The translations under genes were made by a program, and so were the position numbers. Below the pieces are notes generated by a model that saw nothing but the letters and a program-made list of their open reading frames with translations, did no database searches and was not told the origin of the DNA. DNA of 64,000 bases, from NCBI RefSeq assembly GCF_963675165.1, contig NC_087377.1, forward strand, positions 14,690,198 to 14,754,197, read 5' to 3'. This DNA comes from Halichondria panicea (taxonomy: Eukaryota; Porifera; Demospongiae; Suberitida; Halichondriidae). Below are positions 19,519 to 56,393 of the stretch, piece by piece (position 1 is the stretch's first letter; each line of letters starts with the position of its first letter).

Positions 19519-21929
19519 TTAGTGTTTGATTTCTCCATAAGCCTGGTTCGACTGCATCTCAATGTTTCGCTTTACCGTCTAGAGTAGGATAATCATTACA
19601 CAAATATAATAATTATTTCCTCACTTGTCCATAAGCTTCATTAAACTCCACTTGAATGTCTTGTGTTCCTGGTGTCACTGCTAGACCAACTTCCTCGTAT
19701 ACTGGACCAGCTGGGATTTTTGGAGCTTCATTGCCTGACAGTTGGCTATCTATTTAGACAAACCACATAATTATAAACAGTGTATCGCAATTAAAAACTT
19801 CCGTTTACTTTTTTGTTTCTTAATGATAATCACTAAGAGAGCTATCACTACCAGGACAAGCAGTAATACCACTAACAGAACGCCAGTAACACCTCCAGCT
19901 ACAGAAGCAACGTTCCCACCAGTTACTGACACACCTATATATAAATATATAATTATAGGCCATTATGCAGCATAATATACATGCATGCAGGCAGACTCTG
20001 AACTCACACTCCAACGGAGTCAGGTCAGGTTCCCAGAGACCAGAGTTGTTACAAGTGGCAGTCACTGCACCCACCAGTGAGAACCCTGGATCACATTGGA
20101 AGGTAATGATTGAGCTCTCGGTTGGGTTGGTGTTCTGAGAGTTGGTGTTGAGTAATGCTCCATTGAGTGGAGGGGCAGGCAGGACACACGAAACTGCATG
20201 CATGCATGCATGTGTATACAAGTGTATGATTCAAGTGAACGCAAAACATAATGCTTTATTTTATTTGAAGTTAAAGCTGAAAGAGATGGAGAGATGAAAT
20301 TTGAATGTAATTATGCTTTCACTGCTATACATTTTACCTGATAACTAACTAATTGTCCCGGATAAAACATTTTACGAATGTTTTCTTTCTCACCATTAGG
20401 AAATCACTCACAAGATTCATTTCTACAGACGATCTCCCCTGGTTTATTGTTCCACTTTCCTGTAGCTAGACAGGTGGTAGTCATTATCCCCTCAGGGAAA
20501 AGTTCATCGTCACACTGGAAGGTCACTTGAGTACCGGGAATAGCTGGTACTAAATGACTGCTGATTGTGCCATTCTGTGGTGGGGATAGTGGAGCTGTGC
20601 AGTTCATTGGAGCTGTGAGGTGAAAAAATAAGTTTTTGTACAATCAAGAACTCAACTCACGAGTTGTGGGAGGGAGTGTGGGTAGTGATGTACACTCAAT
20701 AGCCTCAGGGTCTGGACTCCACATCAGTGTATCTTCACATGTCACCATTGTAACAACAGACACATGCCCAGCATCACACTGGATGGTTACTGTGGATCCT
20801 GGCAATCTGGTGGAGACTAGTCCAAATGCTCCATTCATGGGGTTGGTTAAAACAGAACAGCCACCTGCATGAGAGCTAGGGAACTATCCACAAAAATTGC
20901 TATGATGCTGTCAAACCACGTACCAATTCTGAAGTTGTACTCAACGGTTATACTGTTCCCAGCACAGTTGGTAGCCACAACACTGACAGTGTAGTTCACA
21001 TTGTATTGATCAGTCACAGTGACAGAGGTGGATGTGAGGACAGTAGCAGAGAGCTGGGCCGGAGGTGAGATGGTCACTGTATAGGTGAGGTTATCTCTAC
21101 CACCAGACTCAGTAGGAGAGTCCCAACCAATAGTCACATTAACTCCATCGACTGAGCTGCTTGAAATTGAGTTACTCAAACCAGTCAATGGTGACGGAGT
21201 AGCTACAAAGTATATGTTGTATATAAGTTGATAATTATAGAACCTCACTTGCTATCAGTATGGTGAGTTCTTCCCTCAACTCCGGCCTTCCTACAGGAAG
21301 ACAACCAATAGTGATCCCCTCCATCGCAGGGAATTTTAAACTGGAGGTGATCATTGAACTGGTGGAATTGAACACCACTGAGGTAATAGTGTACTGATCT
21401 CGTTGGTTTGGTACATCGAGTGATTGATCAATTCTGACAAGCTGTTGACCAGGGATTTCCCATTCAAAGAAAGAAGTGGACATATCAACAGGCACTGTGC
21501 AAGTGAGTGAGACCACATCTCCAACACAGGGAGTTCCAGTGTAGTCACGTGTCAAACCACCCAGCACAAACGGTATCATACCTATACATGCATGCAACCA
21601 TTAATTGTTATTATTGTGACGTTTTGTAGCCTTCACTATTGCATGGTATTAGTTATGCCCTAGCTCGTGCTTCAGTGCAATAATATGCCATGCATAAATC
21701 CCAATTAAGTGCCCATGTTGTAACTATAAAACTGATGCACCTATTTTGAGAGAAATACCAAATTTACCTAAACGTCATGCAGTAACATGCATACAGACCT
21801 ATTTATAATCAGACTATAGAGTTTAATGTCTATAGTGTAACTTACTAGCCAATACACTTTTCATATGACAGTCCTACAGTTTCTATACTCACCAACCATT
21901 AGAATCCAAACTGTCTCTGTGTCTGTCAT
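19519..21929 (-). CDS. Type I receptor A: Ig-like, FN3, three CCP, TM, tyrosine tail
   Basis: Exons: 21929-21893, 21581-21249, 21202-20924, 20864-20661, 20612-20412, 20193-20008, 19934-19809, 19749-19625, 19578-19519. All have GT-AG sites; the sum is 1551 nt, an open frame of 516 residues. Domains: short hydrophobic start 1-12 (MTDTETVWILMVG; weak as a signal peptide, so an upstream exon is possible); Ig-like 13-123; FN3 124-216 (WDSPTESGG); CCP 217-284, 285-351 and 352-413, each with the Cys pattern and a Trp near the end; TM 414-455 (GGVTGVLLVVLLLVLVVIAL) followed by KK; cytoplasmic tail with PVYEEVGL, NEAYGQ and NQAYGEI. It is probably a cell-surface recognition receptor. Receptor B follows upstream in the same orientation, 505 bp away. 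Confidence 0.88.
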
Positions 21930-22433
21930 GATGAGAAGTATATCTAAACTCCAGAAGTGAGATGGCTGATCATGTGATCTATAGCCAATAACATCCATCA
22001 AACATCCAGTCATGTGACTGTACTTTAATTGATACCCTGAGATCATTGTAACGGATCCCAGTAAATTGACACTCATTAAACAGCACAATACATGCATGTA
22101 CCCCACTGTTGACGATTAATTTTGAGGTCGATATGTTAATTGTACTGCAATGGCTTAAACTGAGAAATATTGCGGGAAATTTGTAGGCTGTTATTTCAAG
22201 AATAAAAGAATGGAATATATAATAGGCAATTTCTCAGGCTCGATCCTGATCTACCAACTAAGGCCTATATAGACATCAGTCAGGAGGTCCATAGCATTGC
22301 AGGAATAATTATAGCATGCTGCATGCTTGTTTAGCCACACAATCTAGATTAATGGTTTAGCCAGCTGCTGTGATCATCAACAGTGAAAGTAAACTACAAT
22401 CGTACTATTATTGAAATAAACAAACAGTTCAGT
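21930..22433. other. A-B intergenic segment, duplicated elsewhere
   Basis: Holds the upstream region of A and the 3' flank of B. Blocks such as TTGATACCCTGAGATCATTG and TTTAGCCAGCTGCTGTGATCAT also occur at 47255-47575, downstream of receptor D. No exon seen. Confidence 0.6.
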
Positions 22434-24660
22434 TCAGTGCTTGATTTCTCCATAAGCCTGGTTCGACTGCATCTCAATGTTTTGCTTTATCGTCTAGAGT
22501 ATATAATAGGATAATCATTACATAAATCTATAATATAACCTCACTTGTCCATAAGCTTCATTAGACTCCACTTGAATGTCTTGTGTTTTTAGTGTCATTG
22601 CTAGACCAACTTCCTCGTATACCGGACCAGCTGGGACTTTTGGAGTTTCATTGCCTGACTGTTGGCTATCTATTGAGACAAATCACATAATTAATACGGT
22701 GTATCGCAAACAATTTTCATTTCCCTTTACTTTTTCTTTTCTTGACAATAATCATTAAGAGAGCTATCATTGCTAGAAAAAGCAGTAATAACAGACCGCC
22801 AATAACACCTCCAGCTACAGAAGCAATATTCCCACCAGTTGGAGCTGCCGCACCTATATAATTATATAGATGCGGCAGCATATACATATAGGCCATATGC
22901 AGTATAATATTATGTAAGTTCATTTATGCCTGTATACAGGCATAAATGAACTTACACTCCAATAGAGATTGATCAGGATCCCAGAGACCAAAGTTGTTAC
23001 AAGTGGCAGTCACTGCACCCACCAGTGAGAACCCAGGATCACATTGGAAGGTAATGACTGAGCCCTCAGTTGGGTTGGTGTTCTGAGAGTTAATGTTGAG
23101 TAATGCTCCATTGAGTGGAGGGGCAGGCAGGACACACGAAACTGAGCACACAGAATACAATTGTAACGTTACGCTATTCGAACTTTGAGCTCAAAGTAAA
23201 AAGGTTAATTGACACCATTAAACCATAAACCAGGTAACTTACTAGACTCATTTCTGCAGACGATCTCCCCTGGGATCTTGTCCCACTCTCCTGTAGCTAG
23301 ACAGGTGGCAGTCATTATCCCCTCAGGGAACAGTCCATTGTCACACTGGAAAGTCACATGAGTACCAGGAATAGCTGGTACTGAATGATCACTGATGGTG
23401 CCATTCTGTGGTGAGGATAGTGGAGCCTTGCAGTTCATTGGAGCTGTGAGGAGAAAAAATAATATTTATACAATCAAGAACTCAACTCACAACTTGTAGG
23501 AGGGAGTGTGGGTAGTGATGTACACTCAATAGCCTCAGGGTCTGGACTCCACATTAGTGTATCATCACATATCACCATTGTAACAGCAGACACATACCCA
23601 GCATCACACTGGATGGTTACTGTTGATCCTGGTAATCTGCTGGAGACTGGTTCAAACGCTCCATTCATAGGGTTAGTCAACACAGGACAGCCGCCTGCAT
23701 GAGAGGGGTCAGTGTAGTGTGCTGTTTAAAAACGATGTCAACTCACTAATCCTAAAGTTGTATTCAGCTGTTGTACTATTCCCAGCACAGTTGGTAGCCA
23801 CAACACTGACAGTGTAGTCCACATTGTATTGAGCAGTCACAGTGACAGAGGTGGATGTGAGAACAGTTGCAGAGAGCTGGGCCGGAGGTGAGATGGTCAC
23901 TGTGTAGGTGAGGTCATCTCTACCACCAGTCTCAGTAGGAGGGTTCCACTGTACAGACACACTAGCTTCATTGGCAGAGCTGCTCAGAGTGGAGTGTCTG
24001 ATGGTGAAAGGTGGTCCTGGTGGATCTAATTATGAATAATAGATAAACTTAATATAAACTGCTATTCAGTATCAGCAGAATGTAACTGTGTACAATGTAA
24101 CTTAACTGTACGTACCTCAACCAGCAACTCACCAACCAAACGAATCGTTGAAGATCCTATAGTGCTTACAGGCATAAACCCCAAACAGGACACAGTGATC
24201 CCATTCTCTGCTGTTCTTGACAGAGTAGATGTTAGTGTACTGTCATTGAATGCAAGCAGTGTCACAGTGTAACCTGAATGCATTAGTGGTGCATTGAGAC
24301 CAGAGGTGGAAAGGATAGTGATGGGAGTAACATCTGATGGCTCCCATCTCAAGAAAGTTCCAGCGCCAGTGCAGGTGAAAGTAACTGTTTCCATTGGACA
24401 TAGTCTCTCCACACTCACTGAATATTGTGCTGCAAAGGAATTAATAAAGTAAAGAAAGGCACAAAAAGTTGTGTTGGCTCTTCTAGATCTATCACTTGAA
24501 ATACTGAAAGGTGCCTATTAATATTAAATCTACAAGTTTTACCACTGATGGCACTCCGAGAAGATAAACAGAATATGATAGCAAGATCTATGTAGAACTT
24601 GAGAGACAGTGGATTAGAGCCTATTCCACTCGAACTCCTGATCCCCAGTCGACTAGTCAT
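22434..24660 (-). CDS. Type I receptor B: Ig-like, FN3, three CCP, TM, tyrosine tail
   Basis: Exons: 24660-24543, 24429-24133, 24025-23747, 23694-23491, 23443-23243, 23141-22956, 22853-22731, 22669-22545, 22493-22434. The sum is 1593 nt, an open frame of 530 residues. The first exon gives a hydrophobic leader (FYIDLAIIFCLSSRSAIS). Ig-like 40-138 (MTVTFTC-type core with WEPSD); FN3 139-231; CCP 232-299, 300-366, 367-428; TM 429-469 (IGGLLLLLFLAMIALLMIIV then KKRKSK); tail with VYEEVGL, NEAYGQ, NQAYGEI. The exon sizes of FN3, the CCPs and the tail equal those of receptor A (279, 204, 201, 186, 125, 60 nt), which shows tandem duplication. The donor after the third CCP lies at the edge of a 42-bp perfect palindrome. 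Confidence 0.88.
22914..22955. repeat. 42-bp perfect palindrome at a splice donor of receptor B
   Basis: GTAAGTTCATTTATGCCTGT continues into its exact complement. The intron after the third CCP exon starts at 22955, which is the first base of the palindrome on the minus strand. In the RNA, the first 42 nt of the intron could fold into a stem that hides the 5' splice site. The other receptors have no such structure at this junction. Confidence 0.9.
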
Positions 24661-25339
24661 GCTCCTGATTCCTATACTTCTTTTGTAGTGGCTCACGTAC
24701 GTACGTAATGTAACGTAATGTAACGTACACAGCAAAAACTGCTAACAAATACGGGAATTACGGGATGATCATTGAATGTCACACACACGGTACAGGTCAC
24801 AGACTTTCACGGGGGAGTAGTTTAACGGGAACCGTTGCCGTGGGGGAGGGGCTGGACGGGCAAACGTATGAAGACCGTGCAGTCTGGCCACATTAGCTGA
24901 CAGACAATAAAGAGACACCGTATATCTATAGAGTTTTGCTACTATATAATTATGTGCCCACTTCACCAATGGCTACTAATAAAAAAAACAGGGTGTACAT
25001 CTAGTTGATCAAGACGAGAGTGGATTAGAGCCACAACCAATGGCAAAGAGGACCAGATCTAGAGCTAGTGTCCTGTGTCCTCACTTGCGATCAGCACATA
25101 TCCAAATCTAGTTATTACAGTATTCAGATACAGACCTGAGTGACCCCATGACTTACCTGGATAGCTATATTCAACTGGAGTTGTACTGTCGACTCGTTAT
25201 AATAATAATAAACTTGCACTGTTTTATATTATTCTTACTGATAGGAGGAGGAGGAGGAGGAGCTCGTAATTGCGCATGCGTAGTATGAAACCCACATTTT
25301 AAGCGGGATGATTGGAGAAGCTGAGGACTTGGATTTTAA
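24661..25339. other. Intergenic, upstream of receptor B
   Basis: No exon seen. A short microsatellite (ACGTACGTACGTAATGTAACG, about 24697) and a GGA repeat near 25246-25262 are present. AGTGGATTAGAGCC occurs twice (24609 and 25018). Confidence 0.4.
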
Positions 25340-26418: not shown

Positions 26419-26427
26419 GGATTTTAA

Positions 26428-28620: not shown

Positions 28621-28694
28621 CACTTGGTCTTGCGTTTGTGTGGTGATAATGTTTGTGCACTGCATGCATGTGTGCTTGTGTGCATGTTGTTTTG

Positions 28695-28702
28695 TTTTTA
28701 TA
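28695..28702 (-). promoter_or_regulatory. TATA box of the TRAF-like gene
   Basis: TATAAAAA on the minus strand, 75-82 nt before the chosen ATG at 28620. It supports that start over the one at 28725. Confidence 0.5.
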
Positions 28703-28749
28703 CCCTCTGCGCATGCATGCTGCATGTACAGTCTCCCAGAAAAGGAGGA

Positions 28750-28969: not shown

Positions 28970-29700
28970 ATAGTACGATAGTACTATCTGAAGACACTAT
29001 CTCAATTAAGGCATCTCCATTAGCAGTGCAAGTGAAAGTGACTGTTTCCATTGGACATAGTCTCTCCACACTCACTGAATATTGGGCTTTAAAGAGCATA
29101 AAGTACTGTAAGGAAACATAATTCGAATATTCTTTCTTATACTAGTGCTGAAGCCAGCCAGAACTATAATGAGCTTCGAATTCATCTCTAATCTCATTGA
29201 ACTAGACCACTATAGAATTTGTTGACAGTGTATACATGCATGTTATAAGATTGCATTTAATTGTGATTGCTGACTAGACAACCTCACTGTGACTAAAAAT
29301 AGCATGTAGAACAAACGACAAAGTGTTTGCAGTAAACCTGTATTGATTGATTGGCTTCCACCCAGTTTAACCATAGGTAAGAGTTAGGCTCTTCAATCTA
29401 TGGTTAAACTCACCAATAAATGGAATCACGGAGTGCAACACAAACACAAGCAAATGTTGTATGGGAATCACTTCGAAAGTTTCTTATTAAGTATCAGCTT
29501 TTGGGGTCATTAATTTTAGGTGCTGTGTTCCCTTAAAGCACTGGCACACAATTGAATCTCAACCATGTGACGTATTTATAGAGCACTCACAAACTGAAGA
29601 GCTTTCGGTACTTTATAATAACCTCACGCCATTACAAATCCTCACACCAGTTTGAGCAGTGTTTCCAGGAGGTTGATGTGTTGAAGCGTTAGAGCACAGC
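28970..29700 (-). pseudogene. Orphan 5' end of a receptor gene (upstream region, leader, half Ig exon)
   Basis: 29086-28985 matches the start of the Ig-like exon of B and D (QYSVSVERLCPMETVTFTC) and then loses similarity after the TANGD residues. 29160-29130 matches the leader exon of receptor D (CTGGCTGGCTTCAGCACT) but its donor is altered. 29160-29690 resembles the upstream region of D at 49870-50230 (CCACCCAGTTT, AGTTTCTTAT, CTTAAAGCACTGG). So promoter, leader and half an exon were copied without the rest. Confidence 0.7.
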
Positions 29701-30134: not shown

Positions 30135-32222
30135 TCAACTCATGTATCCAATTTCTCCATAAGCCTGATTCAACTGCAGCTCAATGTTTTGCTTGGCCGA
30201 CTGGAGTAGGATAATCATTATTTGCAAATCAAATAATCTCTAATCTCTCACTTGTCCATAAGCTTTATTAGACTCCACTTGAATGTTTTGTGTTCTTGGT
30301 GCCATTGCTAGATCAACTTCCTCGTATACCGGACCAGCTGAGGCTTTTGGAACTTCAACAGACATTTGGCTATCTGTTGAGCCTAATCAAAAAATTAATA
30401 TACGAAATTATTATAGATTGAATAGGATTTCTGTACGATTGCAAACAATGTTCTCACTTTCTCTTTTCTTTGTGATAATGAATAAGAGAACTATGAGCAC
30501 CAGAACAATCAGTACCACCACAAACAAACCGCCAACAACACCTCCAGCTACAGCAGCAATACTCGCACCAGTTACTGGCACACCTATAATAGGCCATTTT
30601 ATACACATGTCTTTGATATGTAAATGAAATATACTCACGTTTAATTGCAAGTACACACATGATGGTGTCAGGCTCTGTGCTCCACACTCCAGCATTAGTG
30701 CAAGTGATGATGATGGGTCCAGTCAGTGAGAGTCCATTGTCACATTGGTAAGTCAGCACTGTTCCCTCCAACACTGTCTCATTCAACCTATGATAGTCCA
30801 CTATAGTACCATTGGATGGCTCAACAGGAACAGTGCAGTTGACTGTGTATACAACAGTAAAATAAGTGACAGCACTACCTGGAAAAATCCTGCACTACAG
30901 TACTGCGATCAATCTCACTATGAAACTCACCGATTGTTGGACACACAAAATTCTCAGGGTTAGGATTCCATCGTCCATCACTGCCACAGATAGAGGTTCT
31001 TATCTGATCACTCCCAGAACAAGTGAAGGTCAGTGTGGAGTCCACAGTAGGTACACTGGGTGTCTGGACATTGACCACTCCAATAGCAGTAGAGAGGGAG
31101 GAAGGACAAGAAACTGCATGGATTGAGAATAGAGGTAAGTTAAACAAAACTCTACAAATTAAGTGACACATTAATGCTTGCTGACCTGTGGACAGTGTAG
31201 TAAACAACATTGAGGCATTGCTCATTCCAGCACAGTTGACAGCTCTGATAGACACATTGTAGGGAGTGTTGTAGGAGATGGTTATCTGTGCTGAGGTAGT
31301 CTCCACGGTGACTGGTGATCCGGAGAGAGGTGTTAGGGAAATGGTGAGAATATACATGACAGACACACCACCAGTGAAGGAGGGAGGGTCCCAATTCAAA
31401 GTGATAATGGAAAACCTGACTAGGTTTTGTTGAGAAGTCACTATCAGAGCAGATGGAGAAGATGGAGGCTCTGTTTGAGATGCAATAACACTATTAGATC
31501 TACACAACAGCATTTACTATTTTTTTGTCATTCACCGGCTACATTGATTGTGAGTGACTCAGTTATATCCCCCAAACAGCTCACAACACTGCCGTTTAGC
31601 CTAGACACTTCAGTGATGGTTGTGAGGGTAGAGGTAAGAGTACCATTACTGGTGGCAGCCACAGCAGCTTGAAACATGAATCCTTCAACTCCAGCAGGTG
31701 GTATACTACCAGTTGAAGAAGTTATAACCTGTGTTACCGACACAAGATAGTCAGGTGTAGGGTCAACTCTCCACAAAAGTGAAGTTCTACCAACAGAGCA
31801 GGTGAAGACAACAGGGTCATTTGGGCATGCCACACCATCACCACTGCTGGATGTCAACTGGTTGGCTGTGAACAAAGTGTACATGCATGTATGTACTATA
31901 GCTTACGGATAAACCTATCAATGCATGTATAAAGGAATAGAACAACATCAATATAAGCCAGATCTATAGATTTTAGCTATAGCGTGTACATAATCTATTG
32001 TGGACTCTTTAATTATTATATGGACTGCATGTGAAGATATACTCAGCAATGATTACCTTTTATATGTATATAATTATAGCTTACACCAGGAGCTTACACA
32101 CTGTCACAAATAATAGATAGTAGACATTCTAACTTACTAGAGACTGTAGAAATGAAGTGACTGTGACTGACAATGAAATAGATACATTGAAAACAAAGCA
32201 GTTTACACTCAGAGATATCCAT
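30135..32222 (-). CDS. Type I receptor C: Ig-like, FN3, two CCP, TM, tyrosine tail
   Basis: Exons: 32222-32138, 31865-31536, 31470-31186, 31113-30931, 30842-30639, 30583-30458, 30373-30252, 30200-30135. The sum is 1401 nt, an open frame of 466 residues. Leader 1-28 (LCFQCIYFIVSHSHFIS); Ig-like 29-138; FN3 139-233 (LNWDPPSFTGG); CCP 234-294 and 295-362; TM 363-404 (GGLFVVVLIVLVLIVLLFII) then TKKRES; tail 405-466 with PVYEEVDLAM, NKAYGQ and NQAYGEI. It has one CCP fewer than A and B and a much more diverged ectodomain, while the tail is close to theirs. This suggests an older duplicate with fast-evolving outer domains. Confidence 0.86.
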
Positions 32223-32429: not shown

Positions 32430-33800
32430 TCTTTGTTGCAACGGCCTCGTAGTTAACTTACCGTCTGCACAGCGCATGAACAACTTCTCATTATTTTGTC
32501 CATAAGCATCAACTTGCATTTTGTGTCATTGCTATAGGCCATTTTCTTCTATACGGGACCAGTTGGTACCACCACCAAGTGTGCATCATCACTCACTATA
32601 CCCCAATTGTACTGAATATAGTTACTGTAGTCCAGCTATAGATGTCTAATGATGTAATCGTATCAGTACAAAAGCTTGATAAAAAATTTATGTTAGAGCT
32701 GACCAAGGAATGTGAACTATAATTATGGTAACTGTGATAACATGCAGGCTATGAAAATAGGTCATTAAAGCTAGTGCATGCATGCACCGGCCATTATTAC
32801 ATTACATATAGGATTAATGTCAAAGTACCTGCTGTATATAGTGTGCTATGATATCAGCCAAACCAAATGTGAAAAACAAGAACTGCACCACAAGCTAGTA
32901 TGAACTATGAAATTATAACTCAAACAACAGCTATAATTATAACGATGCAAACAGCAACCCTCCAACACTAGCGTGCTCCTGCTACCTGCATATGCTTGGC
33001 CTCATGTGTTGAGTGGGAGCGCCCTCCACACAATAGTGTCTATCAAGATTAAACTAACGATCGATTAGTCCTGGAATCCTCAGATCTATTGAAGACATCA
33101 TTGAAGACCAACCTCATTCAAGCCTTTGGGCTGCTTTCCTGAAATGCCTGCCACTTTGTGCAAGAAGATAGCCGAGAATAAACCAGGCTGTCAGTTTGGA
33201 TATGAGGTGCATGTCCACCAGGGTTAGTGCTTATTAATAATGTGATCAGCACTATAAATAGACATGTTGGAGAAGTGAAAGGTTCGCTATGGAGAATGCA
33301 TGTGCTTTGACTGTTTTCCCTGTACACAATTCCGAATAAAAGGCGTGTGGAAAGGTGATTGTGTATCAGAGAATAAATGAAATTAGTCCAGCAAGAACAA
33401 TAAACACCAGGTATACATCAGTGATATCTATGTTGATGGAGTAAGCATAACACATGTGTTCCACGTCAGCACATCTGGACGTTTTCAGCTGCTATTGGTG
33501 AAACCTATACCATTCAAGTGCAAGCTGACCATAGTGCAGTACGTGCCTGCCCGTGTCAAAAACGTTTGATGATGTATATGACACAAACGTTCAATGTTTG
33601 CCACAGAATGTAATTTATCTTTTATAATCTCCCCTGGTGTATAATATTATTGCCCCATGCACTCTTCTGTATCTAGACATGTGGCAGTCAGTAGCCCCTC
33701 AGGGAATATCATGGTGGAAGGTCACTTGTGTATATACGCAGGAGTGCTCTGATATACGGTATAGCTGATATTGAATGATCAGTTCGTGGTAAAAGGTGTA
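32430..33800 (-). pseudogene. Decayed receptor copy (tail and CCP remnants)
   Basis: 32435-32590 keeps the pattern of the tail exons (CTTGTCCATAAGC, TTTTGTGTCATTGCTA, TATACGGGACCAG on the plus strand). 33625-33780 keeps parts of the second CCP exon (ATCTCCCCTGG, ACATGTGGCAGTCA, CCCCTCAGGGAA, GGTCACTTGTG). No open frame remains. This would be a sixth member of the receptor family, extensively degraded. Confidence 0.55.
32700..33620. other. Unannotated spacer inside the decayed receptor copy
   Basis: No exon or repeat that I can name. AT-rich, with several ATAATTAT and GCATGCATGC palindromes. Confidence 0.4.
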
Positions 33801-34388: not shown

Positions 34389-36189
34389 TTAATTGTCATT
34401 TTCAAGCAATTCAGCAATGTACGACTTCTCTGAGACGAATTCAGATGCAGCAGTCTCATCGACTTTAATGGCTTCATCTTTCATGGTACTATGATTATGT
34501 TTGCTGAATCTTGAGTGACTTGGCTTGAGCTGAACACCACTTGTCGGATTCTTGCTCTGCATGTAATAGATATTTCGCAATCTGGCACTATAAATATAAA
34601 CAGTCTAATTTCTAACTTGAACTACAATGGAAACGAGCATATACACTCTAATAATGCATATATAATTAATAATAGGCGATCCACGTCCTGTCTAGACATT
34701 AATTTAGGTAGATCTATGTAGTTATACCAGATCGTTTTTTCCTGAGGCAGAAGTTAATACAACGCTATTCATTCTCTTTCTGCACTGCTTTAGGAAGTTT
34801 GTGACCTAAAAAGTAGAAGAGATTTAGACATATAAAAATGCTAAAAAATAAAACACGCACCTTTTCACTCCTGAGCACATGGAAGATGAATACAAACAGG
34901 CCTTGCAGTGAGTTAAAGATAGAGAACAACCATGCAAATACAATAGTGCTGCTGTTGACTGAGAGTAGACCAAACACCCAAGTCAGCCCGAGTATTGGAA
35001 GGAGAATTACGGTGGTCTTGAAGAGTTGTCTGCATGCATAATTATATATATACAAGCATTGGGATCAACGTGTTACTGAATGATACATACATGAGAGTTG
35101 ACACACTCACGAGAATAACTGTAAAGATTCCTTTATCCCAGTTTGTTGCACGGTTGACTTTCTCAGATTATAGACACTGCGTAAAGCAGCCAAGAGGAAG
35201 AACACATTCACCTGTATATGTATAGTCATCTTATAAAGGTCAATTAATTTAACAGTGCAGATGTGTACTCTGAGTCAAAAACTGCTGCTATAATTATTAT
35301 TACATGCACTATAATTATTTCGATGCATTTGCAAGCTATATAGAGATCTCACCAGAACAACTAGTAGCATTGGTACAACAAATGCCCATATCGCTCCTTT
35401 ATCACCAGCACCAACAGCAATCCAACAACTGAATGTACAAAAATGAACAAATAAATAAATATTGTCAGTTGTAAAGGTTTGATAATTACACGAATTCTTT
35501 TTTGAGGGAAGCGCTGTATGTTGTAACATGCATGCAGGTATCTATAATAGGATTTGAAGATGAGGTTCCACTGAATTATACAATAAAACTTACTACTTTT
35601 CTGTGCCATACTGGTCATGAATAATTCCAGCAGATATAGCCACCGGTATCACTGGAACACCTGCAAGAAACATAGCCAAATGCACTCGACAGAATGCTAT
35701 TATAATGAAAGCACCACAGGTGCTGATGCCTCGGTGGAGGTGCCAAAGCTACATAACATAAAACTACTAATAGCTAGCTTTTATACACACATTGATCATG
35801 ATGAACATCTTTAATTTTGCTGCATGCAATCAACCTAATAGTAGGTAATGATCGACCATGATTTTTGTTAAAAACGATCTATGCCAAAAGTTCAAGTCTA
35901 AAATTAATGGCTGCAAGTCAGCAGAGCCTTGCAGCTCTCTGCTCACTCTTGCAGCTACCAATAGCTAGCGTTTTAGTGCATAGCTAACTACTAAGTAGAG
36001 TAGCAATACTCGGTGAACAAGTTTTGCTACGTGCTCTTCTGCAATGGCATTCCAAGTAAGCAAAACTAGGCATAACTCGAGAACAAAGAATTATTTTGCA
36101 AATCCACAAATTAAAATCCAAGTAAACATGACTAGAAGCCTATAGAAACTCTTACTTGCACTTGATTCATCCTTGAGCAGCCGTAGCGG

Positions 36190-36240
<51 letters not shown>

Positions 36241-39200
36241 ACAAACACACTACCGTATACCTTGCTTGTGCATGCGCACCGAGGCATAATTATATATATA
36301 GTTATCACTCATGCATGCATACATAAATGGATGAACCCTCCAGCTGCAGAGGGATATAAGTAATTCACGCATTTGTTAGAGAGAGGTTGTTTTCTTTATT
36401 GTGCTCAAGGGCTGACAGTGCATGCATGGGCAAGAAAGGACAAGCTTAGCTATAGTTAGCCTCGTTCCAACCGAGTTGTCTCTAAAATAACGCTAGATCG
36501 CCAACTTCAATCGTTTTATTTCGGCCTGGGAACAAGGCTATAAGCTGCAGTATGACATGTGTAGTATATTGTTTAGCCAAGCATGCAGTGAAAGTGCATG
36601 GTTGCTTATGCATATACTATAATTATGCATTCACGGTACATAATTATATAGTATATGCAATCAATCGTGCAATAGAAAAAAGTATTTACCCCATCCAATA
36701 ATAAAGAATATCCACCATTTCTTGGATATTTGGTTGAAGACAAGCACCAACATCAGATAGAGCATGATTCCCTCACACAGCATCCAAAAGAACACAGTAG
36801 TGAACAGGTAGTGAAGGAGAGCAGCCACAAACACACACGCTCCCTGCAAGTGATGGAGAATTGTAAAGGATCAATACAGTATAGACTCTCGCTAATCTGG
36901 CTCTCTGAATTATGGTCAGCTCGATAATAATTATACCAGCCGTTTTCGTTATAGGCATGGATTGCTATAATTATAGCTAGATCAATACTGCACAAACTCA
37001 CCCTGAAATGCGGCCACCTCGCTATTCCATATATATACTAGTCAGTTCTAACATGCTCCAAGCCAGATTCTTTAATGGGATACACATAATATATATTATG
37101 TAATACGAATATAATTATGAGAGCAAAAGGCCAAGTCATGGATCCTACTGTATACAGTAAAAGTTTGGAACAACAGTGAACAATCTAATTTGTGAATGAG
37201 CCAAATAAGCAGAAAAAATTGACACTTTGCTATCTGTATAACTTTTACAATCATGCAGGCAAGGATGGTGATATCATAAAAGTATACTGAAATAGGTATC
37301 TGCGATCTTATTTTTGAGATGCCATAAGCACTCACAAAGCGCAAATGGAGTATAATAGTATTATGATATATATAAGGCTTGCTCATATATGCATGAATTT
37401 CGGCATGCACGTTGTCCGTTAAAGTTTTAAGGTAAAGTGTACCAGCTATACAATACTGCTTATAGATACACGACTCAAGTTATACACCTCACCTTGTTGG
37501 CCACAGCAGTCTCTACTCCTGACAGGAACACCACGTAACCAAGCAGCAAAGAAATAGACAGGTTGAGATGGATAAAGCTATGAACCTTGGTCAGTAGCTC
37601 TTTTCTAAGTATCAACAGCATAATAATTAAGGTTTTATGTAGGCAAAGCTTCAATAATTACCTCAATGTCAAGAAATAGAGGATAGACAAAAAAAGAAAG
37701 AAGATGGAGATGGAACAACCAACATAAGTCACCACCGACAGAGCAAACCTGATCTCTGGAGTTGTGTCCTACAAAGATCAAACATAATTATGAACTGATC
37801 TAAAGTATTCGCTGCATGAGGCTCACATTCAGTGCTCCAGTGACATCCATTAGAACAGAAAATGCTGTGAAATGACTGCTCTCACAGACAATATTATACA
37901 CTCTCATTTGCTCGTCTTCACCCACACTGACTGTAATCACACCTTCCGTGGACCACGTGCTGTTGGCCGCATCACTGACAAAATAAATCTTTGACAACAA
38001 TAAACATTAGGAGGACATGCAGCTCACCTAGAAACACTCCAAAATACACATCTTGCATTTTCAGCAACTTCATCTTCAGAGAACTGCACAGTGACACACA
38101 TGCAAGCATGAATTAGTGTTGCTTGTAAGTCCAACTACCTTTTGGGTGGTGAATCTGAAGGTTGCCTGTGCCTGAGAGTTAGTTAACTTTACATTGGAGA
38201 AGACTTGACTAGAAATAACCTGTGACACTGGTCTGGTCGTGTTCCTGCATATATAAACACAATGAGACAGAATAGAACATGATTTAGTATAGTACATTTC
38301 AAAGTTGGTTTTTGGAAGAAAATTCTCCAAGTTGGAAAATAGAATGTTGACTGCTGTAACATTCCCATCTGAAAATTGAGACAGACACGGATAAATTGGT
38401 TACCACCATAGTTTATGAAATACTTAGAGCGCCTCTCTCCATAAGATGAGCAGCTGGTATCACAGTTTGGGCTGAGCCTGTTTCTTCACTGACTTCGATA
38501 ACTTCAGGAAAGATAATGTCATCCAAACTAGTGGTGTCAACTTCAATTGCAGCTAGTACTGGACGGTAAATGCAAATATACTAGCTTCAAATCAAGCTAT
38601 TTAGCAATGATTATAAATGCATGCATGGTGGAAGTACCCGTACCGATGTTCTGTCTCACAAGTGTGATCTCTGTCACGTTTCCTGTATCCACAGCTTTAC
38701 TCCTTAGTGCCAATGACACATACTGACCATATAACTCTGCACTCAACAGCAATTGCTGACTCTCAGCAGCAGAATCCTGAAGTAATATTTGCATGATTGT
38801 CAGTTAAGTACTGTATATTTGTATACCTCTTGTAATCTTTCCCATCCTTCTGTATTCCTCTCATCCAGAACATTGTTGAGAACGTTCATAACTTCCTGCA
38901 AGACACTAATAAAAGGGATGTTTTACTTAACTTATAGTCTTACTTCACTAAAATTGAGAGAAGACATGGGGCTAGCAGTCTCAACGTTTTGAACGAGGTA
39001 ATTCACACTTGACTTGACGATCGTATTAGTAATGCTGAGGCCTTGAGGGAATATGGTGGAGTCTCCAGTTGCATTTACACTAGTAGCCTCCGCAAGAGAA
39101 ACAAGAAGGTCATCAACTTCACTCTGAGATGCATTTCTAGAAAATAGTTCATTTGCCTGAATGGAGAATAAATCGTTATGAAACGACGATATCAAGGGCT

Positions 39201-42200
39201 TATATAGGGCATGCATGCAACTCAGGCTATTCTCAGACTCAGCAAACTTCATAATTATACTGTTACTCATTCCGCTGGGCGGAATGCTTGCCACTATACT
39301 GGACTCTATTTATATAGTACATCCTGTCTCTGAAATGAAGTTGGATGATTACATAGTTTCTCTTTAAGCCTTTGACGATATACACGTGCAACATTATTCA
39401 GTATATATACGTATGACAGACAGTGCATGTATTTGTGTAAATTAATACATGCAGTAACTGCAAAAGCCTCACCCTGTCAAGAAGTGAGATGAATACTTCC
39501 CTTAGGCTAGTGCATTTATCAATATTCACTGCTTCCCACACACCACTCAGTGTACAGAAACGATTTGCAGTACCTATTAATACATGCACATCAACACACA
39601 GTCACATGGAATGATAAAATGATACCTAAAGTTTTTCCATTTTCATTTTGTGGGCATTGCTGGGAATAGGAAAAGCCAGCCACAGTGGCAGGGAAGACAA
39701 GCCCCCATACAGAATCACGTTCAGCTTCACACTGAACCACGACTATAGATAAAAACCATAATTATAATCAAATTGTGTTTTCTATTCAGTTGCTACGACC
39801 ATGAACGAGGCAGAGTCCAAACAGCACATGCAAGTGTTTATGCATTCGCTTTGGTTGGACTCCACCCAACTAAATGAGTATGAGGATGCAATATCAAAGT
39901 TCGGCAGCCTCGCAGACCCGAACTGTATAGTCTGAACACATCAATTTCAGCCAGGAGGTATATAATTATAGCCTCGAATCTGGGCCGATCAAAATACCGA
40001 ATTTTGTCAGATGTCAATAATCGTCAGCTAAAACGAACAAAATGAGATTGATTCTAACTCCAATAGGTGGCTATGGGACTACTAACCAGTGAACATTTGT
40101 GGGTCAAATCGCTTCCAGTCGGAGCTGTGATCACTAGAAAAAACTGTCCAATCGTTCGATTTTCGGCGGGATGGGGCGTCTTACTATGCATAGTATTGCG
40201 GATTCACTATCATCTATACCACATTTCCTTGTTTGTATAATGAAGTGCTTTGTATGTGTGGCTGATACTGTTTGATCTGAATATCATTCAGTACAATGAA
40301 TAATGTCAGCAGCACTTAGCGGTTTGACATAATTATTATATGGCATGATTTGTACATACATACATATAGCTAGACGATACTGAATCATAAGACGCTCCAC
40401 ATCCACTCGTGTGCTCTTGCACTGACACATAGCACAGTATAGTGTTGAGCAGACTGAGAATATTCTCTTCTCGTGTAGTTGTGGAATATACAGCCTTGGA
40501 AAACATTGTAGCATTAATTGCCGTTTTCATTGAGCACATTCACTCTAATGCTTGCAAAAAGGGGGGGGGGAGGGTGACATTATCAGTAACTTTTACTGTT
40601 AAAAAAATGAGTTGTTTCAAAGTCTAGCTATGATAATAATGTGAGGGAGGTTGTTAGGATGATCAGCGGCAATCAATAATTGTCCAATAAAAGCGGATTA
40701 AGATATCAGCATGTTGAGGGAAATCCAAAAAAAGTGAATCATCACTTCAACCACGAGAGGATCTTTGCACTACTCTACTGCCATTACTCGCAGGAATACA
40801 GTACTTTTACACACATGCATGAACGTGTACATGAATGATATTCTAGTGATCTTCTATTTAAATAGTATTTAAATGCTCAACTTACTATTACAGACGACTT
40901 CACCAGTTCTAGACAATGAAGCCACAAATCCATTCAAGCAGCTACAGTTGAACTGTCCCATGTTATTCAAACAAATAGAATTTTGACCACAGTTGCATTG
41001 TATGGGAGATAATCTCATGCCTCCAGGGTAACCATACGAATTGAATGCATTGAATCCATACACTGAGACACCTAGAACGGCTGAGCTGTTTTGATGGCGG
41101 ATAGAATGAGCTCCAGTAGACACATTTGTTCTACTTATATGGCCACAAATATCTCCACTTGAACAGACAACATTCCTCCAGCCAGTAACAATGGAATTGT
41201 CTAGTAATATTTGTGCAGTTTGAAAGAACTCAGAAGGAACATACACCGTGACATAGTTGGATACGAAAAGAAGAAACGCTTTGACCAAATAATTATTTGT
41301 ATACTGCTCAATTGGAGGGATCATCATCATGAATGGGTCTCCCATGCCATCACTATCCCTACCATACGCATACTGTGTGACCAGTACTGGTGAAGTGGAT
41401 TCAATGCTACAGAAACTGTTAATAGGGATTTCAAATTCTCTGAAACTCCCTCCACTCTGTAACTGGAATTGACTGACTGATACAACAGTGTTACAGTTCA
41501 CAACTACATTTGCTGCTCGGGCACTAAGAACACGAATACGTTCACCAGAAGATCTACCCTCGAGAGATGCCACGAGGAATTTTGAGCCCCATGTCACAGT
41601 CGGAGGCACTTGTTCAACCACGTGGTCACAACCACCTATACCTGGAGGAACTAAAATACAATCAGATCCACTAAACACAGACAAAGGTTTGGAGCTAGTT
41701 ATTCTTGTTCCCGTGAGATCATTATCGCTTTCAATCTGATATGTTTCCATACTATTGAGTGTTATTGTCGAGGAAATGAATTTGACAACAGTTTCATTTT
41801 CACAAGCCACCAGCAAAATCGCACTAGGATAGACACTACTAATGGTGTCATAGGAGATTCCATAATATTCATATTCATCAACTGCCATTATAGAACATGG
41901 TAACGCTAAATAAGCATCTGCACTACCTGAATGAAAAGACAGCCCATACACACTGATGTTTCCATCAGCTTCAACAAAGATTCCCTTGTTCCTTTCATCA
42001 ACAGATAATACCTCAAAACTGGATGGAACGTTTACCCTAGTTGAAGAGTTAGAAATGTTCCCACTGATATTAATTGGAGTGACTGTGAAATTAACACTTG
42101 ACTTTGGGTTTGTGATAAATAAGAACAACTCGTCTGCGCCTTGACCAAAACTTGTTGGGAAACCGACCGCAAATTTTTTTCCAGCACTTGATGAGGTCTC

Positions 42201-45886: not shown

Positions 45887-45888
45887 TA

Positions 45889-46932: not shown

Positions 46933-46934
46933 TA

Positions 46935-49869: not shown

Positions 49870-50290
49870 TTTAATCTCTAGACTATTAACTTTGTTGACA
49901 GTTAAAAGATTGCACTTCATAATTATGATTGCAGTTGCTGACTAGACAATCTCACTGCATGTGACTAGATCTAAATCTACTCAAAAGACAAAGTGTTAGC
50001 AGCAAACCTGTATTATGGTTTGTATTCCACCCAGTTTCATTTAGCTCACACTGACACACACCAGCTAGTCCAGGAGTCACAGAGTACAACAAGAAAAATT
50101 GTATGGTAACCACTTTTAAGTTTCTTATAAATGCAGTGTCAGCTTTTAAAGTCCGTTAGGTACTCTGTTCACTTAAAGCACTGGTACACATTGAGCAGTA
50201 TTTCCACGATGTTAAAGTATCGAACTTCCTGAAAACACTGCTATACTTCTATATATATAGAGCACAGTAAATACATTGTTCCACTATAAA
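49870..50290. promoter_or_regulatory. Upstream region of receptor D, shared with the orphan fragment
   Basis: Blocks of this region recur at 29160-29690. Conservation of the upstream segment in two copies suggests it includes the promoter, but no TATA box is clear. Confidence 0.35.
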
Positions 50291-52790: not shown

Positions 52791-53027
52791 TCATATAGAT
52801 TGTTAACCTAGCTATATATGCATGATTTCTCCATAAGCCTGGTTTGACTGCAATTCAACTTTTCACTGTCATGTTTTTTTTGTTTTGCTGTTCTTGTAAC
52901 TTTTTCATACAATGTTCAATACAGTTCATATTTCACACAAATGTCACAAATGATATGGGCAACAGAAATTGCTGCCTGGGGTAAGATAATCAGATGACTC
53001 AAATCTCTATCAGGTTCATTTTCTCAC

Positions 53028-56000
53028 TTGTTCATAAGCTTCATTAAACTCCACTTGAATGTCTTGTGATCTTGGTGTCATTGCTAGACCAACTTCCTCG
53101 TATACGGGACCAACTGGAGATTTTGTAACTTCACTTCCTGAAAGTTAGTAATGTGCTGAGCCAAATGTGAGATAGATCTAGTGATTTTGTACAATTGCAA
53201 ATACTTTTTGCTCCGAGGACGAAGGTGAAGCCCCGAGACCAAGGATGGTTTGCATTGCCATAAATTTATATAGATGTATAGTGGATAATAGTTTATGGTA
53301 ATCAAACCACCCCAGTTGCTATGATACAGACCCCAAGTGAGATATATTTCGGACTTGCTCTTACTTTTTCTTTTTTTGATGATAATGACTCTGAGCACCA
53401 CGAAACTCAGCACCACTACAAGCAGACCACCAATAACACCTCCAGTTACAGCAGCAATGTTCCCACTTGTTAAATGACAAGCGACACCTGTATCGACACA
53501 AATGAACTTACACTCCAATAGAGATGGATCAGGATCCCAGAGACCAGAGTTATTACAAGTGGCAGTCACTGCACCCACCAGTGAGAACCCAGGATCACAT
53601 TGGAAGGTAATGACTAAGTCCTCAGTTAGGTTGGTGCTCTGAAAGTTGGTGTTGAGTATAACACTCCATTGAGTAGAGGGGCAGGCAGGACACAGGAAAC
53701 TGCATTAGTATATAATTATAATTATATGCACTGGAAGATGGTGATGCACACAGATAAAGAAGTCACTCACTAGATTCTTTTCTGCAGACGATCTCCCCCG
53801 GGTTGCTCTCCCATTCTCCTGTAGCTAGACAGGTGACAGTCATTTTTCCCTCAGGGAACAGTCCATTATCACACTGGAAGGTCACTTGTGTACCGGGAAT
53901 AGCTGGTACTGAAGGATCACTGACGGTACCATTCTGTGGTGAGGGTAGTGGAGCTGTGCAGTTTATTGGAGGAGCTGGAGAGATTATAACAATCAAAAAC
54001 TGGTACTATAGAAAAATCAAGCTGAGAAACAAGCTTCATGCTGTCTTATAAATCTCCAATAGATAGGGAACGTGTATTTAGCTGTACACACTGCATGATA
54101 TACTGGCGTACCAGGTGGTTGTTTGGAGGGATGAACTACCATCAGCCCAAACAGTGTTGTGTATAATCCATTATTGTACAATTGAGTCTCATTCGAGTTT
54201 ATACCATTCCTGAACACTTTCTCTACTTGAGTGTAATAGCACTCATCTTCAAATTCATACTGTCCAATACCCCATGTGAACCCGACGTTTTGACCCGGGC
54301 CCACTTTAGTTGCTAGTAAGGACGCATCTAGTTCAGCTTCTACTAACAGTGAGAAACATTCGTCTATCCAGTACAATTTTCTCTTTATGAGGTCTATGGC
54401 GATCGTGGACGCACACAAATTATTAGACAAGAGAGTTTCTGGAACGCCATTGTCTGTGATTCTCATAAGTTTTGAGTTATGAATATCTGTCTTTACCATC
54501 ACAAATAGCCACCTGCATAGAAGTTGTTAGTCGATCAACATCAAATATTTCACAAAGTACAAAGAGATAATAGTTTTCAATAACACCTATGTATTATTCT
54601 GCATGTACTGAACTTGATAATCTCACCCTTTCCCAGTGTAGGGGAAGATGCTCAATCCTTGAGGTCGATCACTACCTTCAAACTGGAAGATGACTTCAGA
54701 TGTCTGAGCCACAATATCGTACAAATGGAGTGTTCTCCTGGTTTTATCCGTCCAGTACACTTTGTCGTTAATCCAGTCCATTGCCAGGCCAACTGGACTG
54801 CCTAAATCACACAAAATGCATAATTATAAATAGTGGACAGAGTTTAGATACGTTTTTTACAATAAATAAATCTGACGTACATACTCTTAAAAAATTTTTA
54901 GTGTTAATATGAAGAGGATTTATGAAATATTCTTGCTCTAATTTTACAAAATGAAGTCATCATTGGGTCTAAATTACTAAACTGATGAAACCCTTACCCG
55001 AAGTGTAAGATAATTGTGAGCCCCCTAAGCTCTGAGCAGCTACTGTTCCTGTAGTACCAGCATCAGTCAAGAGAGGAATGGAGAAGAGTCCAGGCGTGCT
55101 GTCGTTTATGTAAAATATTAAATTCCTCCTGTGAGGAAAAAATATAGCTTGAGGATAACTGCGTACTTTCAAAAAGCACAAAATGCATACACTAGCTGCA
55201 TTCATACATGGTAATTGTGAACTACAAAAATCATATATATAGAAGATTAAAGTTTGTACACAAAGTTTGTACACAAATGCAAATGCACAATTATACATGT
55301 AAACGAGAAACAAAAAAATTCGTTTGTTGCTGTGTCTATGACAATTTTATACTCATAATTATTCAGACTATTGGTATTAATATCGCCATTGATATAATAT
55401 CAGGAGCAGATGAGGGGATGGAGCTAGTCTTACTACGCAATTATATATCGGCTATCTATGTACAAATCATGCCATAATAAAACCACTAAGTGCTGCTAAC
55501 ATTATTCATTGTACTTAAGATATTCATTATAGATCAAACGCGTTATCAGCCACACATGTACATGTACAGAATACTTAGCACATTACAAACAAGGAAAGTG
55601 TTAAGACGATACTATATATATTATGCAGAGTAAGACGCTCCATCCCCTCATCTGCTCCTGATAAATAGCTAAAAATGGTCAAACTTTGAATGTTGAATGC
55701 AAAGTTTGCCTTTATTATGTTATATGAACAAGATATCTAATTATATACACACTTATTGCGAAGAAATGTAGTTACCTGTAGTGATAGTCCACGGCAATTA
55801 TTCCATTGTCCGAATGAATGACTTGAGCATCAGTGGAGCCATTTATTTCAATCCTCAGAATTGAGCCCCAGGCAGCCACCAGTAAGAAAGGAGCCCTGTA
55901 ATAAGGAAGGAAACAGCATGCAGCATTGATTTGTGCATTTGGTATCATACAGTGTCGGTTGACCACAGCTTATTGCTAGAGGTAAACATTTGAACAACAC

Positions 56001-56393
56001 CGCAACTATGTTGACAGTTATAGAGCTTGCCACAGATATATAGAGGGCTAATACTCCGATGTATCCAGTCTGTTGAAACAACAACTCTTAATGTCTGGTC
56101 ACGCAGCCTTGATGTATTTTATTATCTCTGCCCTCTATATAATTATATCTGTAGCAAGCTCTATAGTTGCGGTGTTGTATGGGTGCTATAGTATATGCAA
56201 TTGGTCATACATACAATCAACTGTGAGGTGGCCATGCAAGGATATGCATGCGCACTAAAAACTCTGGTAGCCGAGTTATAGAATCTTACACATCATCATC
56301 CAGAGCTCCTTGCACCTCAGGTTGGGCTGCAGCATCAGTTTGAGTGAAGAGAGCCAAGGCCAGCAGGGCAGCTATCAGTTCAGTGAAGATCAT
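53028..56393 (-). CDS. Receptor E: YWTD beta-propeller joined to CCP, TM and tyrosine tail; frameshift in second CCP
   Basis: Exons: 56393-56290, 55895-55776, 55128-54998, 54801-54627, 54512-54112, 53974-53771, 53699-53512, 53487-53365, 53137-53028. The signal peptide is clear (MIFTELIAALLALALFTQT). Exons 2-5 carry LDL-receptor class B (YWTD) repeats: IIAVDYHY, LIFYIND, KVYWTD, KLYWID; these fold as a beta-propeller in LDLR/LRP proteins. Exon 6 is a CCP equal to the second CCP of A, B and D. Exon 7 (third-CCP type) has a 2-nt insertion near 53657, so the frame stops at 53626; the predicted product is then a secreted protein of about 403 residues. The TM exon (GGVIGGLLVVVLSFVVLRVI) and tail exon (PVYEEVGL, NEAYEQ) behind it are still open. 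The last tail exon is interrupted (52810-52980). It is a chimera of the family cassette and another ectodomain. Confidence 0.8.

What the first reader, a model, noticed from the sequence alone, without database searches (positions are those of the whole stretch)
19519..56393. Candidate recognition-receptor complex: variable ectodomains on one conserved TM-tyrosine tail
Seen: five receptor genes (A, B, C, D, E), one orphan 5' end (28970-29700) and one decayed copy (32430-33800) in 37 kb, all minus strand. Ectodomains vary (Ig+FN3+3 CCP; Ig+FN3+2 CCP; YWTD+CCP), while the TM exon start and the cytoplasmic tail stay alike, with three tyrosines in fixed places: PVYEEV, then N-x-AYGQ 22 residues on, then NQAYGEI 16 residues further. 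Known: clustered, expanding and decaying Ig/CCP receptors with tyrosine tails are typical of immune or allorecognition loci in other animals. Inference: this is such a locus in a sponge.
Basis: partly seen in the sequence, partly recalled or inferred. Interest (0 to 1): 0.82.

Follow-up and report, generated by a model that had tools for sequence, protein, structure and literature searches.

The report
Sponge receptor array, swappable heads, tails
A sponge genome holds roughly two hundred look-alike surface-receptor exons in one chromosome stretch, with a variable antibody-like tip outside the cell and unchanging signalling tyrosines inside, which suggests a large built-in system for telling self from non-self or microbes.

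Summary
The receptors are real, but the window is only the edge of something larger. Of the five genes A, B and C are intact; D and E carry frameshifts. The tail keeps Tyr+22+16 in A-D; E loses the third tyrosine. A silicatein gene marks a demosponge. On the same 18-Mb contig 197 merged Ig-exon places lie in 11.2-14.0 Mb, mostly near a second, two-tyrosine tail (150 rows, capped). In 40 sampled genes the tyrosine motifs are almost frozen (8 non-synonymous, 44 synonymous changes), while the Ig exon varies at positions equivalent to V-domain CDR1, FR2/CDR2 and CDR3, and in length at the last two. Heads and outputs are mixed: one tail module sits under Ig-FN3-CCP, YWTD-CCP and IgGFc-EGF-CCP heads; the IgGFc head also sits, 82-88% identical, on a 7TM adhesion-type GPCR in this window. 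E is a chimera; A and B share a chassis but not an Ig exon. Best reading: a germline-diversified recognition complex signalling through YxxV/I docking sites. Immune versus allorecognition role is untested; the V-like fold rests on one moderate model.

The parts
19519..21929 (-). Gene A: signal, V-like Ig, FN3, 3 CCP, TM, tail exons T1 and T2; intact, 516 aa
   Evidence: splice model; Sushi over cut-off, fn3 below it
22434..24660 (-). Gene B: same layout as A, intact, 530 aa; Ig exon saturated at synonymous sites against that of A (pS 0.74) while FN3-tail exons are recent copies
30135..32222 (-). Gene C: Ig, FN3, 2 CCP, TM, T1, T2; intact, 469 aa
47673..49869 (-). Gene D: Ig, FN3 (frameshifted), 3 CCP, TM, T1, T2; not intact
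52812..56393 (-). Gene E: YWTD-type head (exons 1-5, open; YWTD read by eye, no Pfam match) + 2 CCP + TM + tail; frameshift in second CCP exon, last exon starts with TGA
53975..54106 (-). Fusion breakpoint of gene E (intron 5): blastn similarity to the C2 YWTD gene ends at 54107, receptor CCP exon begins at 53974
19625..19749 (-). Tail exon T1 of A (PVYEEV, NEAYGQ)
19519..19578 (-). Tail exon T2 of A (NQAYGEI)
24133..24429 (-). Ig exon of B, V-like fold in a moderate-confidence model
29008..29162 (-). Orphan 5' end: signal-exon match and Ig fragment
33660..33781 (-). Decayed copy: CCP remnant
34389..41999 (-). Adhesion-type GPCR whose IgGFc-binding + EGF-like head is 82-88% identical to heads of tyrosine-tail receptors at C1:16.53-16.57 Mb; seven exons 41999-38430 join in one open frame, the 7TM part was joined by eye, the 5' end is not modelled

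Best explanation
The window is the flank of a multi-megabase receptor complex in a demosponge. The genes encode type I membrane proteins: a variable head (V-like Ig on an FN3-CCP stalk; in other members a YWTD propeller or an IgGFc-binding/EGF head), one TM helix, and a short tail with two or three conserved tyrosine sites. Shown from sequence: copy number, clustering, head/tail mixing, extreme conservation of the tyrosine sites, and variation of the Ig exon concentrated at positions equivalent to antigen-receptor CDRs and the C-C'-C'' face, with length variation (among the intervals measured) almost only in the last two loops. Inferred: the variable Ig face binds ligand and brings receptors together; a Src-type kinase phosphorylates YEEV/YGPV/YGEI; SH2 proteins dock and report recognition. 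Diversity comes from the germline, by tandem and segmental duplication, gene conversion and exon swapping. The 3' half is a reusable signalling module onto which new heads are fused. Most likely use: non-self/self recognition (microbes, grafts, or both).
For: Copy number: 209 merged Ig-exon places on C1, 197 in 11.2-14.0 Mb; 156 of 209 have a class II tail row within 4 kb, 11 of 209 a class I tail row. Mostly open: stops flagged in 2 of 150 class II tail rows, 7 of 117 B-type, 10 of 104 C-type and 1 of 62 A-type Ig rows. Tail: in 40 of 40 sampled class II genes Y51, E52, E53, N65, N67, Y70, G71 and P72 are invariant; motif columns carry 8 non-synonymous against 44 synonymous changes. In 28 class I T1 rows Tyr is present at site 1 in 27 and at site 2 in 27, the exception being L010. 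Ig: amino-acid diversity 0.442 at CDR-equivalent sites, 0.464 at FR2-equivalent, 0.098 in the remaining framework; 1 of 97 circular shifts (CDR) and 0 of 97 (CDR+FR2) reach the observed contrast. Of five loop intervals measured in 42 exons, W28-Y53 (21-26) and C81-T89 (2-13) vary; the others are constant in 42, 42 and 41 of 42. Module mixing: T1 of B differs from an IgGFc-head gene's T1 by 0.06 per site, like A-B 0.07; E head versus the C2 gene; A/B Ig exchange; L055 and L068, 2.1 Mb apart, are 99.5% identical over 860 nt from inside the CCP1 exon onward but show no blastn similarity in the 791 nt before it; IgGFc head on 7TM versus tyrosine tail, 82-88% aa. Ig hypervariable and tail distances are uncoupled (r 0.00) and most linkage within exons is weak.
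Against: No ligand, expression, phosphorylation or polymorphism data. Positive selection is not shown overall: the hypervariable Ig part has local omega 0.81; five sites show an N excess at p<0.1 uncorrected, only site 22 (21:0) strongly, and these counts use one tree per exon although the copies recombine. The hypervariable set was drawn after seeing the data; the CDR set was placed by Cys/Trp landmarks recalled from IMGT numbering. The V-like fold rests on one model at pLDDT 65.8; Pfam and a PDB profile search see no Ig; the Ig exon of C gave an unusable model. Coupling is not absent: Ig framework-FN3 r 0.46, CCP1-tail r 0.43, FR2/CDR2-FR3 r 0.39. Eight split pairs of Ig rows suggest frameshifts that the stop counts miss. 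Four sampled pairs are 99.9-100% identical over 1.5-1.7 kb including introns, so part of the count may be uncollapsed haplotypes or assembly redundancy. The L055/L068 junction may be a duplication edge rather than a functional head swap.
Confidence: 0.6

Rival explanations
1. Microbe-facing pattern-recognition receptors only (no allorecognition): a germline library whose variable Ig tips bind bacterial or symbiont ligands.
For: Large number of members with a CCP/FN3 stalk; the Halichondria panicea transcriptome study lists Sushi, FN3 and IgGFc-binding among the domains of its receptor figure and reports individual-specific receptor expression (passages of PMC8242945). A filter feeder meets many microbes (inference).
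Against: No ligand data; nothing in the sequence separates microbial from allogeneic ligands.
Confidence: 0.4
2. Self/non-self allorecognition locus working like Botryllus FcoR/fester or Hydractinia Alr: haplotype-specific sets of receptors compared at cell contact, with YxxV/I tails tuning fusion versus rejection.
For: Closest described layout: Botryllus FcoRs have V-type Ig + sushi + two C2 Ig + TM + tail with ITIM, hemITAM or core YxxI/L/V motifs, 53 loci, next to fester-family loci that vary in gene content; uncle fester shares 3' exons with fester but has an unrelated 5' half, as E and A/B do here (passages of PMC12065747).
Against: No polymorphism data; strict ITIM and ITAM are not met; two C2 Ig domains are absent.
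Confidence: 0.3
3. Ordinary adhesion receptors expanded by birth and death; the variable Ig segment is simply less constrained, with no selection for diversity.
For: Variable part omega 0.81, with elevated synonymous divergence too; broken copies in the window.
Against: Variation is concentrated at CDR-equivalent positions and one sheet, and length changes almost only in two of those loops (G-strand sites 94 and 96 vary, 93, 95 and 97 hardly), while neighbouring Ig framework and tyrosine sites are frozen; site 22 has 21 non-synonymous and no synonymous changes.
Confidence: 0.25
4. Assembly artefact: the large array is mostly duplicated haplotypes.
For: Of seven pairs cut because their tail rows scored alike, four are 99.9-100% identical over 1.5-1.7 kb at 0.57-1.43 Mb distance.
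Against: The other three differ by 2.9% (L060/L070), 7.3% (L031/L064) and in their whole 5' half (L055/L068); the 40 sampled class II genes differ by 8-29% on average, depending on the segment.
Confidence: 0.05

Closest known systems
Botryllus schlosseri fester co-receptors (FcoR) and fester family, fuhc locus (PMC12065747, passages seen)
   Same: Type I protein, V-type Ig + sushi ectodomain, tail with YxxI/L/V core motif, tens of clustered loci; unrelated 5' halves on a shared 3' half in fester/uncle fester
   Different: Here FN3 instead of C2 Ig domains, 2-3 CCP in A-C, ITIM/ITAM not met, more copies, other heads on the same tail; no functional data; homology not tested
Hydractinia Alr genes (named in PMC12065747; details recalled, not read)
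   Same: Clustered Ig receptors with tyrosine motifs in the tail
   Different: A CCP/FN3 stalk of this type is not recalled in Alr; common descent not tested
Vertebrate V-set receptors (TCR V, antibody VL, TREM-1)
   Same: Nearly all PDB rows shown for the B Ig model are TCR or antibody complexes by title; variation at CDR-equivalent positions
   Different: No sequence match in Pfam or PDB profile; Z at most 7.9 on a pLDDT-66 model; germline copies; rearrangement was not looked for
Sponge receptors with Sushi, FN3, Ig and IgGFc-binding domains (Halichondria panicea, PMC8242945, passages seen)
   Same: Same domain vocabulary in a demosponge
   Different: No V-like Ig array or YxxV/I tail is described in the passages seen
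Amphimedon adhesion GPCRs (PMC4302439, passages seen)
   Same: Mixed heads on 7TM, including Ig, V-set and FN3 domains
   Different: 'IgG' and 'sushi' have 0 hits in that text

Membership tests
V-set immunoglobulin domain | Cys pair of strands B/F and Trp of strand C | tested here: met
   C19 in 42 of 42, W28 and C81 in at least 90% of 42 (39 of 40 each); all three invariant in the four window exons
V-set immunoglobulin domain | V-type beta sandwich | tested here: inconclusive
   Foldseek best prob 1.00 but E 2.9e-2; VIA Z up to 7.9, rmsd 3.3, 88 residues; model pLDDT 65.8
V-set immunoglobulin domain | Match to Pfam ig/V-set models | tested here: not met
   0 of 42 B-type exons at E<=1; gene A ig 0.083, below cut-off
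Sushi/CCP proteins | Pfam PF00084 over cut-off | tested here: met
   A, B, C and the open part of E
FN3 proteins | FN3 profile match | tested here: met
   PDB titin 7.7e-22 with profile A4; A, B, C sub-threshold in Pfam
ITIM receptor | [ILVS]xYxx[LIV] (recalled) | tested here: not met
   Position -2 is P, E or K, and Q at the three sites of A-C; P and Q (one H) in class II
ITAM receptor | YxxL/I-x(6-8)-YxxL/I (recalled) | tested here: not met
   Y-to-Y 22 and 16 in A-D; 17 in most of 40 class II genes, 19 in L018 and L020
Botryllus FcoR | Core YxxI/L/V tyrosine motif | tested here: met
   YEEV, YGEI; YEEV, YGPV. The second class I site reads YGQT or YGQS after splicing and does not fit
Botryllus FcoR | V Ig + sushi + two C2 Ig + TM | tested here: not met
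   FN3 and 2-3 CCP instead of C2 Ig
Botryllus FcoR | Genetic linkage to histocompatibility | not testable with these tools
   needs crosses and grafts
Polymorphic allorecognition locus | High haplotype diversity | not testable with these tools
   one assembly only
SRCR receptor | SRCR domain | tested here: not met
   No SRCR listed for A, B, C or the open part of E at E<=1

The most novel reading that the evidence does not exclude
A sponge has its own germline antigen-receptor-like system: about two hundred V-type Ig exons in one array, hypervariable at the three CDR-equivalent loops and the C-C'-C'' face (in length too at two of them), with segments reshuffled among copies by gene conversion, on an invariant YxxV/I signalling tail. 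The same heads can also be wired to other outputs, including a 7TM GPCR. CDR-type diversification of a V-like domain would then be found in one of the earliest-branching animal phyla, ancestral or convergent.
Probability: 0.35. Interest if true: 0.93.

Novelty: new variant of a known kind. Interest (0 to 1): 0.76.

Why it matters
How sponges recognise self and non-self is open; a 2025 review states that candidate allorecognition proteins are not conserved between sponges, cnidarians and ascidians (PMC12065747, passages). A large receptor array with V-like variable tips and conserved tyrosine docking sites gives a concrete, testable locus, and raises the possibility that Ig/CCP heads coupled to YxxV/I tails were used or invented in the earliest animals. 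The head-by-output mosaic (Ig, YWTD and IgGFc heads; three-tyrosine, two-tyrosine and 7TM outputs) is a natural example of exon-module receptor engineering.

Tried and rejected
Rejected: 'five working genes' (D and E frameshifted). Rejected as proof of positive selection: pooled pN/pS is below 1 in every exon (0.63 Ig, 0.44-0.51 others), and the hypervariable part is near neutral by local omega. Orphan tails on C6 (L014, L015) had no head that I recognised in the 6 kb read, and a third tail class at C1:9.314 Mb (L021) had none in the 5 kb read (by eye, no profile search). L062 (401 bases) was a filler stretch with no purpose. In one search I pasted 116 of 117 B-type, 102 of 104 C-type and 12 of 62 A-type Ig rows (C1 rows only; the other A-type C1 rows re-hit B exons, judged by eye) and 149 of 150 class II rows; of the 105 tail rows, 28 were used as class I.

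Selection of the sample: the 40 class II genes (39 fetched, plus L018) were taken from the hit lists as neighbouring Ig and tail rows without flagged stops, so their openness is not an independent estimate. In the exon tables 39 of 40 had FN3 and CCP1 and 28 of 40 had CCP2 at over 85% coverage. For the gene-wide diversity scan 26 of 40 were short enough to be aligned.

Literature: searches in the held library listed no paper whose title or abstract start describes such an Ig-FN3-CCP-YxxV array in sponges (one search was for Hydractinia). The library lacks most subscription journals. Papers opened (passages only): PMC8242945, PMC4302439, PMC12065747, PMC11999971.
Full report
What was checked. 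The window is G000:C1:14690198-14754197 of a 131-Mb assembly in 39 contigs. I built splice models for the five genes from the minus strand. A, B and C are complete, with a signal exon, one Ig-like exon, one FN3 exon, three (A, B) or two (C) CCP exons, a TM exon and two tail exons; the Ig to TM exons are phase 1-1. D has a 274-nt FN3 exon that breaks the frame, and its exon 1 has no ATG in the fitting frame. E has an open YWTD-type head and first CCP, but its second CCP exon is 188 nt and breaks the frame, and its last exon starts with TGA. Because these exons are symmetric, skipping the damaged exon could restore the frame in D (inference). Pfam supports CCP strongly and FN3 weakly, and sees no clear Ig; an FN3 profile hits titin at 7.7e-22.

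Is it a sponge? The single genome match to a silicatein-type active-site pattern encodes QCGSSYAFGAIGALEG..., and another stretch of the same locus has silicatein alpha as best PDB match at 2e-10, ahead of cathepsins. That silicateins mark demosponges is recalled knowledge.

A far larger family. A tail query finds 105 rows. The best form clusters at C1:14.63-14.76, 16.50-16.57, 11.31-11.34 and 17.6 Mb and on C6. A weaker class proved to be a second tail: one exon with a different TM and PVYEEV...NQAYGPV. Searched directly it gives 150 rows scored of 306 candidates, 149 of them on C1 between 11.25 and 14.93 Mb. Ig queries of B, C and A type give 117, 104 and 62 rows. Merged on C1 they are 209 places, 197 in 11.2-14.0 Mb, median spacing 7 kb; 156 have a class II tail row within 4 kb and 11 a class I tail row. 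Counts are lower bounds by the tool's own note, but four of seven sampled look-alike pairs differ at 0-2 positions over 1.5-1.7 kb, so assembly redundancy may inflate them; and eight split pairs of rows suggest frameshifted members.

Heads and outputs are mixed. In the 16.50-16.57 Mb cluster the same CCP3-TM-T1-T2 module sits under an IgGFc-binding + EGF-like + CCP head (Pfam PF17517 at 2.4e-49 and 2.5e-55). T1 of gene B and of one such gene differ by 0.06 per site, as A and B do (0.07). In this window an IgGFc-binding + EGF-like head (EGF below its Pfam cut-off), 82% and 88% identical to two of those heads, leads instead to a 7tm_2 GPCR. Seven exons from the head through the region before the 7TM join in one open frame; the last step to the 7TM was joined by eye. 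Gene E: its five head exons plus 5' flank are 83-92% identical to a gene on C2. By eye that gene goes on with an EGF-like segment, a Thr-rich stalk and another TM. Similarity stops at 54107, and the receptor CCP exon starts at 53974. E and the C2 copy differ with dS 0.26, dN 0.06 over 301 codons. Genes A and B: FN3 to T2 exons have pS 0.03-0.26, but the Ig exons have pS 0.74 and 36% identity, as expected if the Ig exon was exchanged on a recent chassis. Two class II loci 2.1 Mb apart (L055, L068) are 99.5% identical over 860 nt from inside the CCP1 exon to the end of the stretch, and without blastn similarity in the 791 nt before it, where L055 has Ig and FN3 and L068 shows neither; this is a recent junction, whether functional swap or duplication edge.

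Conserved tail, variable tip. In 40 class II genes the core tyrosine-motif residues are invariant in protein while codons vary silently: 8 non-synonymous against 44 synonymous changes in the motif columns. Pooled pN/pS is 0.63 for Ig and 0.44-0.51 for the other exons. Within the Ig exon, amino-acid diversity is 0.442 at CDR-equivalent sites, 0.464 at FR2-equivalent and 0.098 elsewhere; 1 of 97 and 0 of 97 circular shifts reach the observed contrast. On the G strand, sites 94 and 96 vary but 93, 95 and 97 hardly do. Of five intervals measured, lengths vary between W28 and Y53 and between C81 and T89, where 35 of 42 strings are distinct; the BC/CDR1 interval is constant in length. Local omega of the variable part is 0.81, so a general excess of replacements is not shown; site 22 alone has 21 non-synonymous and no synonymous changes. 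Synonymous diversity is also higher in the variable part than in the N-terminal flank, which fits gene conversion of the flank. Ig hypervariable and tail distances are uncoupled (r 0.00), while Ig framework-FN3 (0.46) and CCP1-tail (0.43) keep some linkage; within the Ig exon most segment pairs are weakly linked, the highest being 0.39.

Fold. AlphaFold of the B Ig exon with four window sequences: pLDDT 65.8, pTM 0.59. By title nearly all of the 50 Foldseek rows shown are TCR or antibody complexes (one exception is an FLT3 complex; chain identities were not checked), best E 0.029. The VIA list is headed by TCR chains at Z 7.9, with TREM-1 at 7.5; by the tool's note Z under 8 may mean only a common arrangement. 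The C exon model failed.

Mechanism. Shown: copy number, module mixing, frozen tyrosines, variable tip. Inferred: ligand recognition by the tip, phosphorylation of YEEV/YGPV/YGEI, SH2 docking. YEEV resembles the recalled Src-family SH2 preference YEEI. The second class I tyrosine reads YGQT or YGQS after splicing. If the T1 intron is retained, A reads AYGQVRK-stop (sequence), which would give a two-tyrosine YxxV tail like class II; this is a hypothesis.

Compared with known systems. The nearest described layout is the Botryllus FcoR family (V Ig, sushi, two C2 Ig, TM, ITIM/hemITAM/core YxxI/L/V; 53 loci) and the fester/uncle fester pair with unrelated 5' halves (passages of PMC12065747). The sponge family could work in a similar way but is not shown to be a member. 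The Halichondria panicea and Amphimedon papers show related domain vocabulary (passages). Seven searches in the held library listed no account of such an array in sponges.

Noticed in passing
window 27361-28620, minus strand: Single open frame of a RING + TRAF-type zinc finger protein with a weak MATH match, set between receptor genes B and C.
   Followed up: partly
window 17534-17947, minus strand: Decayed IgGFc-binding domain remnant with stops, just downstream of gene A (C1:14707731-14708144).
   Followed up: no
L001-L005 (C1:16.50-16.55 Mb): Seven open frames carry repeated PVY(E/K)EV tail units, six with two and one (L004) with three: the number of tyrosine sites is itself evolving.
   Followed up: partly
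L003:484-546, L004:4664-4726, L005:651-710, L016:5504-5557: Third tail tyrosine replaced by histidine (QAHGEI in three rows, LAHEEI in one) in IgGFc-head genes.
   Followed up: no
L021:191-659: A third tail class (PIYEEV, NDAYGK, NQAYELV) with a TM start like class I and no head recognised in the 5 kb read.
   Followed up: no
L068:1-791: A class II 3' half 99.5% identical to that of L055 with an unrelated, unrecognised 5' stretch.
   Followed up: partly
L043:1-99, in the 26-gene alignment: The stretch just upstream of the Ig exon is unusually similar among copies (diversity about 0.06-0.08) compared with the Ig-FN3 intron (0.32).
   Followed up: no
window 50666-50823: Two exact 63-nt copies with starts 95 bases apart between genes D and E.
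   Followed up: no
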